From Synechocystis sp. PCC 7509 (GTDB lineage Bacteria; Cyanobacteriota; Cyanobacteriia; Cyanobacteriales; Chroococcidiopsidaceae), in the NCBI RefSeq assembly GCF_000332075.2, contig NZ_ALVU02000001.1, positions 186,001 through 250,000 on the forward strand: a stretch of 64,000 nt of DNA, given 5' to 3'. Below are positions 58,173 to 64,000 of this stretch, piece by piece; position 1 is the stretch's first letter, and every line of letters begins with the position of its first letter. The notes under the pieces are model-generated. The model did no database searches and had not been told where the DNA came from. It was given only the letters and a program-made list of their open reading frames with translations. The position numbers were made by a program, and so were the translations under genes.

Positions 58173-58607
58173 TTGAATTTACCTTCGTTTATTTGGTTGT
58201 GGAAAATAGCCGCCTGGTCAATGGGTTTTTCTGTCCTAGCTTATTTACTACTAGCGGTGACAGGGGTTTGGATGTTTGGAACTAGAACCAAATCTAAAAC
58301 TCAACCAAGTTGGTTAAAGTTTTTGCATTATGTACTGGGTGCTAGTTTAGTTGGTTTAGTATTACTATTGCTGGCGATCGGAATTGTTGGTACTTTAGGA
58401 CATTTTGGCTCTTTAGGTCATTCATCCCACTATGTAGCGGGTTTAGTAGTGGTTGGGCTAGTTTTACTTTCAGGTGCAAGCGCAACATTAATTCATGTCA
58501 AACCTTGGGCGTGGGGAGTTCACATTGGGACAAATATTACTTTATTTGCTGGATTAGTTTGGGTATCGTGGACGGGTTGGAGCGTTGTACAGAAATATTT
58601 ACCTTAA
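58173..58607 (+). CDS. DUF4079-like four-helix membrane protein
   Basis: A 144-residue membrane protein with four hydrophobic segments (about residues 12-35, 52-75, 84-105 and 110-130). GHSSHYVAGLVVVGLVLLSG resembles the DUF4079 family, which is usual in cyanobacteria and plant chloroplasts and similar in layout to cytochrome b561 proteins; conserved His residues (GHSSHY, LIHVKPWAW, WGVHIG) could bind heme. The TTG start at 58173 is uncertain. Confidence 0.65.
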   Translation: MNLPSFIWLWKIAAWSMGFSVLAYLLLAVTGVWMFGTRTKSKTQPSWLKFLHYVLGASLVGLVLLLLAIGIVGTLGHFGSLGHSSHYVAGLVVVGLVLLSGASATLIHVKPWAWGVHIGTNITLFAGLVWVSWTGWSVVQKYLP

Positions 58608-58620
58608 ATTTGGAGTTGGT

Positions 58621-59196
58621 TTAATCCAAAATTCCAGTCAAATCTAGAACAAATTCCGGTAATACATCTTCCCCTGACAAGCTAGACGGCGACTTTAACA
58701 CCTCTACATTTTGTCCTAAGCGATAAATTTCTACTTGCTGATTATGCGGATCGATTAGCCAACCTAAACGCACCCCACAATCAAGATATTCTTGCATTTT
58801 TTGTTGTAGAAGTCGCAAACTATCGGTTGCAGAGCGCAACTCTACAGCAAAGTCAGGAGACATGGGCATAAATTTCGCTGGATCTGGGTTTAATGCTTCT
58901 AAGCGCTCTCGGCTTATCCAGGAGGCATCAGGAGAGCGATTTGCACCATTAGGGAGTTTGTAGCCGGTGGAAGAATCAAAAGCTATTCCTGTTCCATCAA
59001 TATCTGTCCAATTAAATAATTGCTGGTTTAGTCTCCCGTTACGGTTTCCGCTTCCCCATCCTGTCGGTGGCATAATTATTAATTCTCCCTGTGCTGTGCG
59101 CTCAATTCGCAAATCTTGATTGTGCTGACACAGTTGGAAAAACTGCTCGTCGGTTAGCTCAATTGTGGGACTTAAGTTGAGGATTAGGGCGGTCAT
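58621..59196 (-). CDS. Uma2 family (DUF820) putative restriction endonuclease
   Basis: A 191-residue PD-(D/E)xK-fold protein. It includes NRSPDASWISRERLEALNP, PMSPDFAVELRSATDSL and a QQKMQEYLDCGVRLGWLIDP segment typical of Uma2. This family is very abundant in cyanobacteria and may act as stand-alone nuclease or transposon-related protein; activity is rarely proven. The expected second acidic residue and the lysine position (VEL...) are partly replaced by ELRS, as in most members. It stands at the edge of the accessory region. Confidence 0.88.
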   Translation of the reverse strand: MTALILNLSPTIELTDEQFFQLCQHNQDLRIERTAQGELIIMPPTGWGSGNRNGRLNQQLFNWTDIDGTGIAFDSSTGYKLPNGANRSPDASWISRERLEALNPDPAKFMPMSPDFAVELRSATDSLRLLQQKMQEYLDCGVRLGWLIDPHNQQVEIYRLGQNVEVLKSPSSLSGEDVLPEFVLDLTGILD

Positions 59197-59366
59197 ATTA
59201 TGGTGAAGTGCGATCGCATTACTCGTAAAGTAGCACCAAAGTTTGCTTTGCTAGGGGCGCATATCCGCAAAATTACAATTGGCGCAAAGATAATTACAAA
59301 TATAGTAATTAGTTGTTTCTAAATGGGAACACTAAAATCGAACATTGCTGAAAGTTGCATTACATT

Positions 59367-60704
59367 ATGAGTATGACCACTACAAAACTTCAATCCGCTC
59401 TGCGAAGTCTGCCCGAAAATGCACCAGAAGCAATTGTTGATAGTCTTTTTGCGACTCACTTACTGAGAGAATTAGGATTTCAGCCTGAAGAAATTCACCC
59501 ACAATATAATACTGGTCGTAAACCCGTCGATTATGCTGCCAGAAAGACTATTGGAGATGATGTTTTTATACATACTAAATCTAATCCATACTTACTTGTA
59601 GAGTTGAAAGGTAGAGACATAAATTTATGTAATGACACTGTACAATATCACAAAACAGTTAATCAATTAAAAGGATATTTACTTGACTCCAATTGCAATA
59701 ATTCACAGTGGGGCATTATTACTAATTCTTGTCACATTCAACTATTTAGAAAGCACGGAAAGGTAATTTTCCCAGCAACTCAGTGTATTGCACTTAATGA
59801 GGCAAATATTGATGAAGTTATTGCCTCAATTCACAAAAAGATCGACAAGCCAGCTAAAGCATTAACAATAGCAGTTTATAACAATAAAGGAGGGGTAGGC
59901 AAAACAACTACAACAGTGAATCTAGCTGGAATTTTAGCTTTTTTAGGCAAGAAAGTTTTAACTGTTGATTTTGATCCAAATCAGCAAGATTTGACAAATT
60001 CTCTCGGTCTGCCCTTGAGTCCTGATAATTTTTACAAAGCTCTTATTGAGAGAGATATAGAACTTCAAGATGTTATACATCCGTATATTTTCAAAAAAGG
60101 AAATTTGGAGCTTAGATTTGATGTAATTCCAGCAGATAAGAGGTTAGCTGAAGAAACTGAGGATAAGTTACGCAATCATTTGAAGCTAAATACTCTTTAT
60201 CGCAAGTTAGAATCTTTAAGGCAAGAGTATGATTATATTTTGATAGATTCGCCTCCAAACTGGCGAGTATTTAGCCAGTTAGCTTTATATGCGGCTGATG
60301 CCATTCTTATTCCTACAAAGCACAACAATCTTTTCTCTCTAGAAAATGCAGCTACAGCAATCAAAAAATTTATTCCTGAAGTACAAGCTGCAAAGCTTGA
60401 TGGCAGTCCTATCGCACTACCAATCTTTTTCAATGGCGAAAAGATTACACCCCCTCAGTTAGCAGTTGCTCAACAGGAACTTATCAACATCATCAAAACT
60501 GCTAAAAGGGAGAAGGAAAAATTTAATTTACTACCTTATTTTTATCCTAAATACACAGATGCGAGGAAAGATTTGCATATTCATCAAGTACCAAGTTATG
60601 CCAACATAGCAAGTTCAGCTTTCGCTCGTATTCCTGCGGTATATCGAGATAGGACTGCTCATGAGTATTACAAAAATTTAGCTAAGGAGTATTTTTTACA
60701 ATGA
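59367..60704 (+). CDS. HsdR-like nuclease domain fused to a ParA-type ATPase
   Basis: A 445-residue two-domain protein. Residues about 10-135 match the type I restriction HsdR N-terminal nuclease domain. The motifs are KPVDYA (Asp55), LVELKG (Glu79 and Lys81) and the QLKGY motif (Gln100 and Tyr104), so the PD-(D/E)xK plus QxxxY set is complete. From about 165 a ParA/MinD-type P-loop ATPase follows: NNKGGVGKTTTTVNLA near 174-181, VDFDPNQQDL, YDYILIDSPPNW, and the C-terminal part with LIPTKHNNLFSLENA. A ParB-like gene overlaps its stop by 4 bases. The role could be plasmid-style partition, DNA surveillance or phage defence; this is inference. Confidence 0.85.
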   Translation: MSMTTTKLQSALRSLPENAPEAIVDSLFATHLLRELGFQPEEIHPQYNTGRKPVDYAARKTIGDDVFIHTKSNPYLLVELKGRDINLCNDTVQYHKTVNQLKGYLLDSNCNNSQWGIITNSCHIQLFRKHGKVIFPATQCIALNEANIDEVIASIHKKIDKPAKALTIAVYNNKGGVGKTTTTVNLAGILAFLGKKVLTVDFDPNQQDLTNSLGLPLSPDNFYKALIERDIELQDVIHPYIFKKGNLELRFDVIPADKRLAEETEDKLRNHLKLNTLYRKLESLRQEYDYILIDSPPNWRVFSQLALYAADAILIPTKHNNLFSLENAATAIKKFIPEVQAAKLDGSPIALPIFFNGEKITPPQLAVAQQELINIIKTAKREKEKFNLLPYFYPKYTDARKDLHIHQVPSYANIASSAFARIPAVYRDRTAHEYYKNLAKEYFLQ

Positions 60705-61420
60705 ATAATCTCAGCGATATTGGGAATCTAATGCACATATATTTAGATGATATTAGTCCTGGAGAAAAGACTGATGCTCCTGAGTTTTTGATTAAAGCGT
60801 CTGCACGTTTGCTCAAAGAAAAAGGCGATCGCAATTGGATTCCCTTACTTGTCAAAGAAACAGGCAAAGATAAATACGAAGTGATTGCCAACTCTTTTAT
60901 TTATGCAGTTGCTAAAGAAGCTGGCTTAGATAGGGTTTGGTGTATCATTGCTGATAATAGTGATGATACGGCGGAAGTTACTCAAGTTCTCGCCCAGGAA
61001 AAAACCCCAAAAATTAATCTTTCTACCGCCTCTAGAGAGGAAATTGTCGCAGCATTGCAATACTTAATTGAGCAACCTGGAAGCGCCCTTAAGACAGTTA
61101 AACTTGCTGTTGCAGCCAACCGAATTGATGAAGCTCCCCGTCAATATTGGCAAAATTTCGATCCAATTATAAAAATGAAGTGCGGAATTACTAAAGGGGC
61201 AAAACTTGAAGCTTTAAAGCAGGTGTTTTATGTAAAACCTGAACCAGTACCAGAAAAACCGCCCAAAGTAGATGTTGATAAAAAAATGTCAGATAAAACC
61301 AACGATGGAGGCAGTTTTAAAACAATGACAGTAGCTGAACTTAAGAAAATAGCAAAAGCAAGAGGAATGACTATCCCTAGTAAGATAAAAAAAGATGAGC
61401 TTATTGCAGCATTGAGTTAA
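60701..61420 (+). CDS. ParB-like protein with C-terminal Rho_N/SAP-type DNA-binding motif
   Basis: A 239-residue protein. The N-terminal part (to about 105) resembles a ParB/Srx fold: IPLLVKETGKDKYEVIANSF followed by IYAVAKEAGLDRVWCIIAD. The usual ParB GERR box is missing, replaced by ANSFIYA, so CTP hydrolysis is doubtful. A Pro/Lys linker follows, then a C-terminal module MTVAELKKIAKARGMTIPSK that fits a Rho_N/SAP nucleic-acid-binding helix pair. Its ATGA start overlaps the ParA-fusion stop, so the pair is made together. It is the likely centromere- or DNA-binding partner. Confidence 0.75.
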   Translation: MNNLSDIGNLMHIYLDDISPGEKTDAPEFLIKASARLLKEKGDRNWIPLLVKETGKDKYEVIANSFIYAVAKEAGLDRVWCIIADNSDDTAEVTQVLAQEKTPKINLSTASREEIVAALQYLIEQPGSALKTVKLAVAANRIDEAPRQYWQNFDPIIKMKCGITKGAKLEALKQVFYVKPEPVPEKPPKVDVDKKMSDKTNDGGSFKTMTVAELKKIAKARGMTIPSKIKKDELIAALS

Positions 61421-61464
61421 ATCATCAAATTTAATGCGATCGCAAATTGACTAGAGAATAAATT

Positions 61465-61760
61465 ATGAGTGAAACATTACCCTCTCATCCCTGTCCAATT
61501 TGCTCAAATCCTGTCCCTCACTGGAATACCCGCTTGCAGTTTGTCAAGATTGCGATCGCAAAGTCTGTAATGCTGAAGGTCAAAAGTTAGTTTTCTTCAA
61601 CCAGTCAATCAGTGGTGGTTTTGGGGCGATTGTAGCAGATACTAAAGCCGATTACCTCAGCCATATTTGTTACATCGAAGGCAAAAAATGCTGGGCGGAT
61701 GAGGCTCGATTTGGTGGGATTGTCATTCAAATTTCTACAGTGCGATCGCCTTTAAGATGA
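61465..61760 (+). pseudogene. Small Cys-rich protein gene broken by a frameshift
   Basis: Frame one starts at ATG 61465 (SETLPSHPCPICSNPVP) and stops at 61590. Frame two, open from 61500, continues the expected text with YPLAVCQDCDRKVCNAEG, SISGGFGAIVADTKADY and HICYIEGKKCWADEARFGG. Joined at about 61515-61530 the two frames rebuild one intact member of a small zinc-ribbon-like family I have seen in bacteria. A one-base loss (or a sequencing error) explains it; programmed frameshifting is possible but less likely. Confidence 0.7.
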
Positions 61761-61816
61761 GAGTAAGAGCAGTTCTGTTACGGTGAAGTGCGATCGCTCT
61801 GATTATGACTTTCATG

Positions 61817-63256
61817 CTAAAGTTTTGCTGCTAACAAGGCTGTCAGGTTTAAGCTATTCAAAATACTTGACTTAATTGGGCGCTTTTCATCCCAAAAAAT
61901 TAGCGAAGAATAAAAATCTATTACTAATGGAGAGGTCAAAAGGTCAAAAGTTTGGTGAGCAATTTTCTCATCATCAAAACTAAGAAAGTAAACAGTATCA
62001 TCAAAAATTGCAGGCTTATCATCAAGCAAACCAATTAATCTAAACTCTAATTTTTTATAAAGTCCACAAATTCCAATTTTCCAAGTAGTAAAAGTATAAT
62101 TACCAACACCAAATATAGAAAACTTAGGATTGTTTTTGTATATCTTGCTTTTTCTGTTGTCTAAGTAATTTGCGTGAGATTCTAAATATTTCCAGGTTTT
62201 AGGGGCTAAATCTTTGATACATTCCGTTGATTCACCCACAAATCTTTGCGTAACCAAAACATATTTATCTGGATTATTAGTTCTATTTTGAGCAACGTCA
62301 GAGCCTTTAATTAAAGGAAAAAGATAATTTCCTTCAATATCAACAGATTCTCCTAGTCCATTTGTAATAGTATTGTCAAGCTGCTTGCGAAACTCCATCA
62401 CATTTGAGCAATCGTGTTTGATGCCAGACCTCCATTTTATCCCGTTACTCAGAGTGTGAAACTTTTTGAGGTTTTCAAAAGTAGCTATATCTTTAATCAG
62501 AACATTGTTTTTATAACTTATTTTGTAATGTTCTGAACTCGCTAAAGCACTAAATACATTACAAAAATAATTCTTTGAACTTGCATCAAACTTGCAAAAT
62601 AACAAACAGGCTTCAACGTCGGCATCAAAATATTTTTTGGTTTCTATCTTGTAAGTTGCACATTCAGCAATATTAAGATTATTAGAATATAAATAAGTCA
62701 AGATTTTTCTGGAAACTGAAGTTTTACAAAGCATCGCTAAGTAAGCATCGCGTCCTTGCAACCATTGGACAACCTGAATCAGCATCCACTCTGATATATC
62801 AAAGTTGCTTTTACCTGTAATTGCATCCAAGCCGCTATGGTTTTGAAAGTTAGTTTTTTTTGGTAAATTTTTTCCGCCAATATTTCCTTGTTGTGAGTTT
62901 GTTACCCAAGGAAAATTACCCAGTATCAAAACTCTACCGTTTAATCGATTTATATGCGATAACCAATCAAATTGAAAAAAATCCGCATGATGAAGCTCAA
63001 TTTTTCTGTACAACAATTGTCTCTTTGTTAGAACTTCTTGTAGATAATATTGATTTATTTCAACTCCAATAATTTTATCTACCAACGGAAACAGACAGGA
63101 GGAAGCTTTAATAAAATTACCTACCCCACAAGTTGGCTCAACGATGACATTAGGATTAACCCCAATTTCTATTAACTGCTGACATATCTTCTCTGCAAGT
63201 TCTAAGGGTGTTTGAAAATCTCCATATTCTAATTTTGTATGGGTATTATGAATCAT
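61817..63256 (-). CDS. Adenine-type DNA methyltransferase of a type II restriction-modification pair
   Basis: A 479-residue class I DNA methyltransferase. The AdoMet-binding motif reads VEPTCGVGNFIKAS near residue 41, VEINQYYL is the acidic loop, and motif IV is ILGNFPWVTNS near 113 where NPPY is usual (NFPW is a conservative variant). The rest is a target-recognition region without known family. Its start overlaps the stop of the nuclease gene by 4 bases (ATGA). Low HIP1 density and A+T-rich coding set it apart from housekeeping genes, which fits transfer. The recognition site is unknown. Confidence 0.85.
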   Translation of the reverse strand: MIHNTHTKLEYGDFQTPLELAEKICQQLIEIGVNPNVIVEPTCGVGNFIKASSCLFPLVDKIIGVEINQYYLQEVLTKRQLLYRKIELHHADFFQFDWLSHINRLNGRVLILGNFPWVTNSQQGNIGGKNLPKKTNFQNHSGLDAITGKSNFDISEWMLIQVVQWLQGRDAYLAMLCKTSVSRKILTYLYSNNLNIAECATYKIETKKYFDADVEACLLFCKFDASSKNYFCNVFSALASSEHYKISYKNNVLIKDIATFENLKKFHTLSNGIKWRSGIKHDCSNVMEFRKQLDNTITNGLGESVDIEGNYLFPLIKGSDVAQNRTNNPDKYVLVTQRFVGESTECIKDLAPKTWKYLESHANYLDNRKSKIYKNNPKFSIFGVGNYTFTTWKIGICGLYKKLEFRLIGLLDDKPAIFDDTVYFLSFDDEKIAHQTFDLLTSPLVIDFYSSLIFWDEKRPIKSSILNSLNLTALLAAKL

Positions 63257-63915
63257 GGTTGAGCCTTGTAAATAGCATTTATGCCTTCTTGTTTTCCAGC
63301 ATATTCAATAACTCTGCTGTACTGAAGTCGCCATTGCAAAGCATTAGAGATAGCTAAAAATCCTTGTACAGGAGTTTTTTGAAGGATTGCATCAGCAATG
63401 TTAGATGCTTCAATTTCATCAACAGGCAGATTTCGGTCTAGTATAAAAGCAATCAAATCATCTTTATTCCCGTCATTTTCTAAGATGCTGCGAATTCCAC
63501 GAGTCATTTGAAAATCAGCAGTTTTTTCTGCACTTACATAAATTGTATGTAAAATCTTCAAATTTGCTGTTCGATTCGTGCTGTCATCCCTCTTATCGTA
63601 AACAAAAATAATTAACCCATACCCAAGACCAAAAATCTTTTGTCGCCCAGATTTAAAAGGACATGAGGACTGCGGTTGCTTAATACTTGTTACTTTAATG
63701 TCAATAAGTAGTCCTGGAAAGTCAATGCCACTTGCGGAGTTTCCTTCTATAAAATCATACCGATTTTTGAGATATAGCCTAAATTTTTGTTCTAAATACG
63801 TTCCCACAGCTTTCCCATCAGTAACACCGTATAATAAGGGTTCTGGGTGTACAGACTCGGTTGCTGAAAATATTGAAGCTTCAGCGCAAAGGGTTTCTAT
63901 AGTCAAAATTGTCAT
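63253..63915 (-). CDS. Type II restriction endonuclease, PD-(D/E)xK
   Basis: A 220-residue nuclease partner of the methyltransferase. The likely catalytic motif is SGIDFPGLLIDIKVTSIKQP (Asp, then Asp-x-Lys), preceded by a Glu in FIEGNSA. A conserved PQSSCPFKSGRQKIFGLGYGL segment follows. ATG 63915 is chosen; an upstream TTG at 63939 shares the frame. It overlaps the methyltransferase gene by 4 bases, giving one transcript with the nuclease first, an order that usually requires tight control to protect the cell. Confidence 0.8.
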   Translation of the reverse strand: MTILTIETLCAEASIFSATESVHPEPLLYGVTDGKAVGTYLEQKFRLYLKNRYDFIEGNSASGIDFPGLLIDIKVTSIKQPQSSCPFKSGRQKIFGLGYGLIIFVYDKRDDSTNRTANLKILHTIYVSAEKTADFQMTRGIRSILENDGNKDDLIAFILDRNLPVDEIEASNIADAILQKTPVQGFLAISNALQWRLQYSRVIEYAGKQEGINAIYKAQP

Positions 63916-64000
63916 GGTTGCAGCAAATCTTATTGGCAAGTTTCATATTTTAGAGCAATAACTATGTATTAACTATGGCAATAAGCCTTCATTTACAGAC

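What the first reader, a model, noticed from the sequence alone, without database searches (positions are those of the whole stretch)
59367..61420. HsdR-like nuclease fused to a ParA ATPase with an overlapping ParB-like/Rho_N partner
Seen: one polypeptide contains a complete PD-(D/E)xK plus QxxxY nuclease set (Asp55, Glu79, Lys81, Gln100, Tyr104) and an intact ParA deviant Walker A (NNKGGVGKTT). The next gene overlaps it by 4 bases and encodes a ParB-like fold without the GERR box and with a C-terminal SAP/Rho_N helix pair. Known: ParA alone positions DNA; HsdR nuclease domains cut DNA. Inference: a nuclease steered by a ParA/ParB pair could act as DNA surveillance, plasmid exclusion or phage defence. 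The setting (Uma2 nuclease upstream, a restriction-modification pair downstream) fits a defence island.
Basis: partly seen in the sequence, partly recalled or inferred. Interest (0 to 1): 0.78.

Follow-up and report, generated by a model that had tools for sequence, protein, structure and literature searches.

The report
Nuclease-ParA fusion with ParB-like partner
Cyanobacteria carry a conserved two-gene unit in which a DNA-cutting domain is built into a DNA-positioning motor protein and paired with a ParB-like protein, a combination whose job is unknown and may be defence against foreign DNA.

Summary
Gene A (59367-60704, 445 aa) is an HSDR_N-type PD-(D/E)xK nuclease domain fused to a Soj-like ParA. 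Gene B (60701-61420, 239 aa), overlapping by 4 bases, is a ParB fold without the GERR box, with a helical middle domain and a Rho_N/SAP tail. The fusion is a real cyanobacterial family: 37 of 386 sampled genomes carry a near-full-length copy, 31 with B next to it. Among 80 named loci, 70 have an intact A; B follows within 20 bp in 67 and 364-625 bp further on in 3. In 71 proteins E21, E79, K81 and Q100 never vary and D55 once. The defence-island argument fails: the neighbours of 36 loci matched 13 PADLOC families, random positions 100. Other signs fit conflict with foreign DNA: patchy presence, broken copies, deletions, and in Microcystis a dN/dS of 0.66 for A against 0.12 for B. A ParA-steered nuclease against foreign DNA is my best guess (about 45%), untested; partition, plasmid competition and chromosome maintenance are live rivals. 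My literature searches found no paper on the pair.

The parts
59318..59366 (+). Short leader block before gene A, conserved within the window's own subclade (about TGGGAACACTA..ACATTGCTGGAAGT), while sequence further upstream differs; probably promoter/5' leader
   Evidence: Inspection of 110-bp leaders of gene A from the named loci; other subclades have other leaders, so it is not a family-wide site
59367..60704 (+). Gene A: PD-(D/E)xK nuclease domain fused to ParA ATPase, 445 aa, stop included
   Evidence: ORF; Pfam; AlphaFold2 pLDDT 94.9
59367..59855 (+). HSDR_N_2-type nuclease domain, residues 1-163; E21, D55, E79, K81, Q100, Y104
   Evidence: HSDR_N_2 27.0 bits; matched in 51 of 59 members; residues kept in 70-71 of 71, Y104 in 61 of 71
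59529..59531 (+). Codon of D55
59601..59609 (+). Codons of E79-L80-K81 (ExK)
59664..59678 (+). Codons of Q100 to Y104 (QxxxY)
59853..60701 (+). Soj-like ParA domain, residues 163-445
   Evidence: AAA_31 124.3 bits; Z 29.1 to H. pylori Soj 6iub
59880..59909 (+). Deviant Walker A, NNKGGVGKTT, residues 172-181
   Evidence: K174 and K179 in 71 of 71
60701..61420 (+). Gene B: ParB-like partner, 239 aa, stop included, overlaps A by 4 bases
60701..60997 (+). ParB-CTPase-like fold, residues 1-99, box II replaced by VIANSFIY
   Evidence: Foldseek to ParB/Noc/PadC; GERR in 0 of 67 and LG[RK]GL in 0 of 67 B proteins
61007..61234 (+). Helical middle domain of unknown fold, residues 103-178; in 8 of 67 relatives B is longer and a second copy seems to replace the SAP tail
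   Evidence: alignment A4, lengths, model
61319..61414 (+). Rho_N/SAP-like tail, residues 207-238
   Evidence: Rho_N 27.9 bits; Rho_N matched in 36 of 44 B proteins at E <= 0.01

Best explanation
A and B form a self-contained two-gene unit that acts on DNA. A binds ATP through a Soj-like ParA domain, probably dimerises and coats DNA without sequence preference, which carries or holds its PD-(D/E)xK nuclease half on DNA. B, a ParB fold that has lost the CTPase box and the usual ParA-binding motif and has gained a middle domain and a SAP-like DNA-binding tail, probably marks or senses a DNA state and switches A between idle scanning and cutting. The target most likely is invading phage or plasmid DNA. 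Shown: domains, fold of ParA and B, pairing, kept catalytic residues. Inferred: nuclease activity, DNA scanning, role of B, target.
For: Catalytic set kept in 70-71 of 71 proteins and E21, D55, E79, K81 kept in 16 of 16 solo or distant nuclease-ParA relatives as well. Intact ParA motifs in 71 of 71 for K174, K179, D201, D203, D294. B next to A in 31 of 37 genomes and, in the other set, within 20 bp in 67 of 70 loci; distances of A and B correlate, r = 0.83, 0 of 500 permutations as high. Patchy: 37 of 386 cyanobacterial genomes. 8 of 80 named loci have A broken inside the contig. In Microcystis 10 of 12 genomes have it; one absence is a clean gap and the other leaves a piece of B. In Microcystis A has mean dN/dS 0.66 (nuclease 0.57, ParA 0.71) at dS 0.08, B 0.12, five neighbouring genes 0.01-0.39, with changes avoiding the catalytic motifs. 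Copies on two Nostoc plasmids that also have ParM/StbA and on one IMG/VR contig.
Against: No activity or phage data. No enrichment of defence models beside the pair: 13 families in 144 neighbours against 100 in 140 controls. No recurrent neighbour that would name a pathway. In Microcystis the locus is inherited at one place, and fast change could be relaxed constraint or recombination instead of an arms race; in the other pairs printed (24 of 43 shown) dN/dS was mostly about 0.1-0.3. 6 of 37 genomes have A without a B match. PADLOC knows neither protein.
Confidence: 0.45

Rival explanations
1. Partition or cargo positioning: a ParA-type system that places a replicon or other cargo, the nuclease half serving as a DNA-binding or rarely used cutting part.
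For: Soj-like ParA with intact motifs and an operonic ParB-fold partner. On the window's chromosome-sized contig C1 no ParB_N match reaches the Pfam cut-off; the three that do lie on C2 and C3. A distant relative with a small partner is the only annotated ATPase of this kind on a 12.6-kb Pseudanabaena plasmid beside a CyRepA1 replication gene.
Against: 37 of 386 genomes only; catalytic residues kept; no LG[RK]GL motif and no GERR box in 67 B proteins; on two Nostoc plasmids another partition gene (ParM/StbA) is present; most placed copies are on large contigs. I looked for leader repeats only crudely and found no family-wide parS-like site.
Confidence: 0.22
2. Competition between mobile elements: a plasmid-derived module that destroys or excludes rival replicons and was captured by chromosomes.
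For: Plasmid copies, distant relatives on other cyanobacterial plasmids, an IMG/VR contig; ParA/ParB ancestry is typical of plasmids.
Against: At least 15 copies on contigs of 2.4 Mb or more; vertical inheritance at one locus in Microcystis.
Confidence: 0.15
3. Chromosome maintenance or repair in polyploid cyanobacteria, for example trimming or copy control by a nucleoid-bound nuclease.
For: Chromosomal setting between housekeeping genes; solo A beside rpsB-tsf in three related small genomes.
Against: Patchy, deletable and fast-changing in Microcystis.
Confidence: 0.15

Closest known systems
Chromosomal ParABS (Soj/Spo0J)
   Same: Soj-like ParA with deviant Walker A; ParB-fold partner in the same operon
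   Different: ParA carries a nuclease domain; B lacks GERR and LG[RK]GL, and has a middle domain and SAP-like tail instead of recognised HTH and dimerisation domains
HsdR (type I restriction) N-terminal nuclease, Pfam HSDR_N_2/HSDR_N
   Same: PD-(D/E)xK and QxxxY set, Pfam match
   Different: No helicase motor found in the protein; ParA instead; no HsdM/HsdS partner seen
PadC of Myxococcus xanthus (PMC12704722, passages read)
   Same: ParB-like protein working with ParA outside plain segregation; structural match 6ryk
   Different: PadC binds CTP and has a ParA-binding motif; B lacks the motif, and CTP binding is untested
McdAB carboxysome positioning (PMC6328274, passages read)
   Same: Cyanobacterial ParA-type ATPase with a dedicated partner
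   Different: McdB has no ParB similarity; no nuclease domain is mentioned in the passages
ParB-CTPase fold fusions surveyed in PMC12704722 (abstract, passages and section 7 read)
   Same: ParB fold joined to other domains
   Different: That survey names only the DUF3850 fusion as consistently encoded next to parA; B here is a Rho_N/SAP-tailed form next to parA, and the window's B falls under the current Pfam cut-off, so it may have been missed (inference)

Membership tests
PD-(D/E)xK nuclease, HSDR_N type | Sequence-profile match | tested here: met
   HSDR_N_2 27.0 bits, cut-off 25; 51 of 59 members match at E <= 0.01
PD-(D/E)xK nuclease, HSDR_N type | D, ExK and QxxxY residues conserved | tested here: met
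   70-71 of 71, Y104 61 of 71; lost in L022
PD-(D/E)xK nuclease, HSDR_N type | Matching fold by structural search | tested here: inconclusive
   Listed matches cover 163-445 only; element order fits
PD-(D/E)xK nuclease, HSDR_N type | Cleaves DNA | not testable with these tools
   needs biochemistry
Type I restriction enzyme (HsdR) | Helicase motor following the nuclease, HsdM/HsdS partners | tested here: not met
   No helicase model in A; ParA follows; next genes are B and, on the other strand, type II-like MTase/REase
ParA (Soj type) | Fold and deviant Walker A with signature lysine | tested here: met
   Z 29.1 to 6iub; K174, K179 in 71 of 71
Canonical ParB | ParB-CTPase fold | tested here: met
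   Foldseek E 2.7e-6 to 7bnk, probability 1.00, TM normalised to query 0.33 since only the first domain aligns
Canonical ParB | GERR box (CTP pocket) | tested here: not met
   0 of 67
Canonical ParB | N-terminal LG-R/K-GL ParA-binding motif | tested here: not met
   0 of 67
Canonical ParABS | parS site | tested here: inconclusive
   Crude scan of leaders and downstream stretches found no family-wide site
Known anti-phage defence system | Match to PADLOC models | tested here: not met
   A: 31 bits to PDC-M28B over the P-loop only; B: none
Anti-phage defence system (general) | Lies in defence islands | tested here: not met
   13 families in 144 neighbours vs 100 in 140 controls; protein counts behind the 100 not shown
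Anti-phage defence system (general) | Protects cells from phage or plasmid | not testable with these tools
   needs plating and transformation assays

The most novel reading that the evidence does not exclude
A new kind of immune nuclease: a PD-(D/E)xK cutter distributed over the nucleoid by its own ParA domain and licensed by a ParB-like sensor, so that a ParA/ParB reaction selects which DNA in the cell is destroyed.
Probability: 0.3. Interest if true: 0.88.

Novelty: new variant of a known kind. Interest (0 to 1): 0.62.

Why it matters
ParA/ParB systems are known to move DNA and other cargo, and PD-(D/E)xK domains to cut DNA. Here both sit in one conserved polypeptide with a dedicated ParB-like partner. 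If active, it would link ParA dynamics to DNA destruction and give a concrete, two-gene system in which to test whether ATP-driven scanning can tell foreign from own DNA in polyploid cyanobacteria.

Tried and rejected
Defence island: rejected as an argument by a matched-size comparison. Limits: only 36 of 48 non-window loci and 35 of 40 control regions were used, to stay under the residue cap; control regions came partly from other genomes than the cases; the control table shows 25 of 100 families and neither table gives protein totals.

Conserved neighbours: none beyond the pair among 40 fetched regions plus the window; larger clusters reflect shared synteny in relatives or the three Nostoc plasmid contigs.

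Phage origin: the nuclease half has no match in 50,697 phage records; in IMG/VR one contig, which carries a Rad52-like and ImmA/IrrE-like ORF by eye, nature undecided.

parS or RNA element: crude repeat counts showed more repeats than shuffles both before and after the pair, mostly HIP1 (GCGATCGC) sites downstream; no family-wide motif. No Rfam match in 58500-64000.

Solved structures by sequence: only weak, unconvincing matches for the nuclease half and B.

Okeania without B: first scored as lacking it; rejected, since B lies 364-625 bp further on.

One search read reverse-strand loci in the wrong orientation; replaced.

Full report
What is there. Gene A (59367-60704, +) encodes 445 aa with an HSDR_N_2 match at residues 22-129 (27.0 bits, cut-off 25) and a ParA/AAA_31 match at 167-340 (124.3 bits). 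Gene B (60701-61420, +, 239 aa) overlaps it in ATGA. B has Rho_N above cut-off and ParB_N, SAP and HeH below cut-off. The window lies on G000:C1, 4.2 Mb. Its genus in the held taxonomy includes G391, whose coordinates coincide exactly with Aliterella atlantica CENA595 (L089), so the host is probably an Aliterella relative (inference).

Structure. AlphaFold2 models from family alignments have mean pLDDT 94.9 for A and 88.2 for B. A residues 163-445 match Soj (6iub, Z 29.1, 2.9 A, 254 residues) and, lower, McdA and MinD. The nuclease half was not covered by the structural matches listed; its element order with the conserved residues fits PD-(D/E)xK (recalled criterion). B's first domain matches ParB, Noc, PadC and KorB. 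The rest of B is helical and the linker 194-203 is disordered.

How common and how paired. In an even draw of 386 cyanobacterial genomes, own included, 37 have a match of at least 240 bits over 390 or more residues, two more have full-length matches of 158-177 bits, and three have fragments only (three of the 37 carry a stop or are cut short: G355, G121, G105). In the same draw 32 genomes have a B match of at least 149 bits; in 31 of them it lies beside a near-full-length A on the same contig, and in the 32nd (G133) A is in pieces. Six of the 37 have no B match: G306, G280, G089, G179, G247, G385; five of these loci were read and show other genes next to A.

A scan of 84,980 species genomes with an alignment of the nuclease half alone (search patterns outside the catalytic residues) gave 130 confirmed places, of which the best 80 are listed, named as cyanobacteria except one MAG called Tatlockia that coincides with a genome of the window's own genus. 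The 50 not listed were not seen, so restriction to cyanobacteria is not shown. Of the 80, 70 have an intact A, all fused to ParA; 8 are broken inside the contig and 2 are cut by a contig end. B follows within 20 bp in 67 of 70 (51 with the 4-base overlap); in three Okeania loci it lies 364-625 bp downstream, with extra N-terminal B pieces, and in one of these only N-terminal pieces are seen before the contig ends. A and B distances correlate (r = 0.83; 0 of 500 permutations).

Are the nuclease residues kept? In 71 proteins: E21 71, D55 70, E79 71, K81 71, Q100 71, Y104 61. In the first set of 21, D55 and K81 are each 20 of 21, both lost in the same protein, L022. In 16 further solo or distant nuclease-ParA proteins E21, D55, E79 and K81 are all kept and Q100 in 8. 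Several of these distant forms have their own ParB-like neighbour, and three sit beside an ordinary ~300-aa ParA.

What B lacks. GERR and LG[RK]GL are absent from 67 of 67 B proteins; box II reads as VIGNSFIY and variants. In PMC12704722 (passages and section 7 read) the motif LG-R/K-GL is the ParA-binding element and Box II part of the CTP site, so B should contact A and bind nucleotide differently, if at all (inference). In 8 of 67, B is longer and a second copy of the middle domain appears in place of the SAP-like tail, which suggests that both serve DNA contact (inference).

Setting. No gene family other than the pair recurs around it in the 41 regions compared, apart from shared synteny. 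Nearest neighbours include ATP synthase, ribosomal, metabolic and membrane genes. The controlled test for defence genes is negative: 13 PADLOC families at E <= 1e-15 among 144 neighbours of 36 loci, against 100 among 140 proteins at 35 random places. The window itself, with its restriction-modification pair, was left out because it was picked for that pair. Fifteen copies lie on contigs of 2.4 Mb or more; two lie on plasmids of Nostoc sp. UHCC 0870 that also carry ParM/StbA, one on an IMG/VR contig. A distant relative on a 12.6-kb Pseudanabaena plasmid is the only annotated gene of its kind there, which favours a partition role for that branch.

Evolution in Microcystis. Ten of 12 species genomes have the pair, at the same site in those compared. 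G388 lacks it cleanly; G389 keeps about 420 bp overlapping the end of B. Mean pairwise dN/dS (Nei-Gojobori, 45 non-independent pairs) is 0.66 for A (nuclease 0.57, ParA 0.71), 0.12 for B, and 0.01, 0.08, 0.17, 0.39 and 0.14 for five neighbouring genes, at similar dS (0.07-0.14). In eight aligned copies 99 sites change the residue and 46 are silent only, while catalytic and P-loop residues stay. This fits diversifying selection, but relaxed constraint and recombination are not excluded, and the effect is not general: other pairs printed are mostly lower (24 of 43 pairs shown).

Reading. I judge a DNA-acting nuclease under ParA control, most likely against foreign DNA, at 0.45.

Literature. Searches of the held library listed no paper on this fusion or pair; subscription papers and preprints outside the library were not searched. 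PMC6328274 was seen as passages, PMC12704722 as abstract, passages and section 7; other papers only as listings.

Noticed in passing
61817-63939 (-): Type II-like restriction-modification pair: MTase (PADLOC MTase_II 737 bits) and REase (NF052465 342.7 bits), 397 bp from gene B on the opposite strand.
   Followed up: partly
58621-59196 (-): Uma2-family gene (154.5 bits) upstream of A.
   Followed up: no
61465-61760 (+): Small cysteine-rich reading frame that looks frameshifted between an ATG at 61465 and the ORF listed from 61500.
   Followed up: no
L065, L066, L070: Distant nuclease-ParA relatives (448-458 aa) with their own ParB-like neighbour, lying beside an ordinary 294-304 aa ParA.
   Followed up: partly
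L055, L056, L057; L053; L035: Nuclease-ParA without a B neighbour; in L055-L057 it sits beside rpsB-tsf, catalytic residues kept except Y104.
   Followed up: partly
L132, L133: Okeania loci with repeated N-terminal pieces of B between A and B.
   Followed up: partly
leaders of L109, L111, L113, L115, L116, L122: Palindromes of differing sequence (for example around CCG..CGG) between a possible -10 box and the start of A in Nostocales; possible operator or attenuator.
   Followed up: no
L077: A MAG contig labelled Tatlockia coincides with G393, which the held taxonomy puts in the window's cyanobacterial genus; the label is probably wrong.
   Followed up: partly
L022 (G157): One family member that lost both D55 and K81 while keeping ParA motifs and B.
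   Followed up: no
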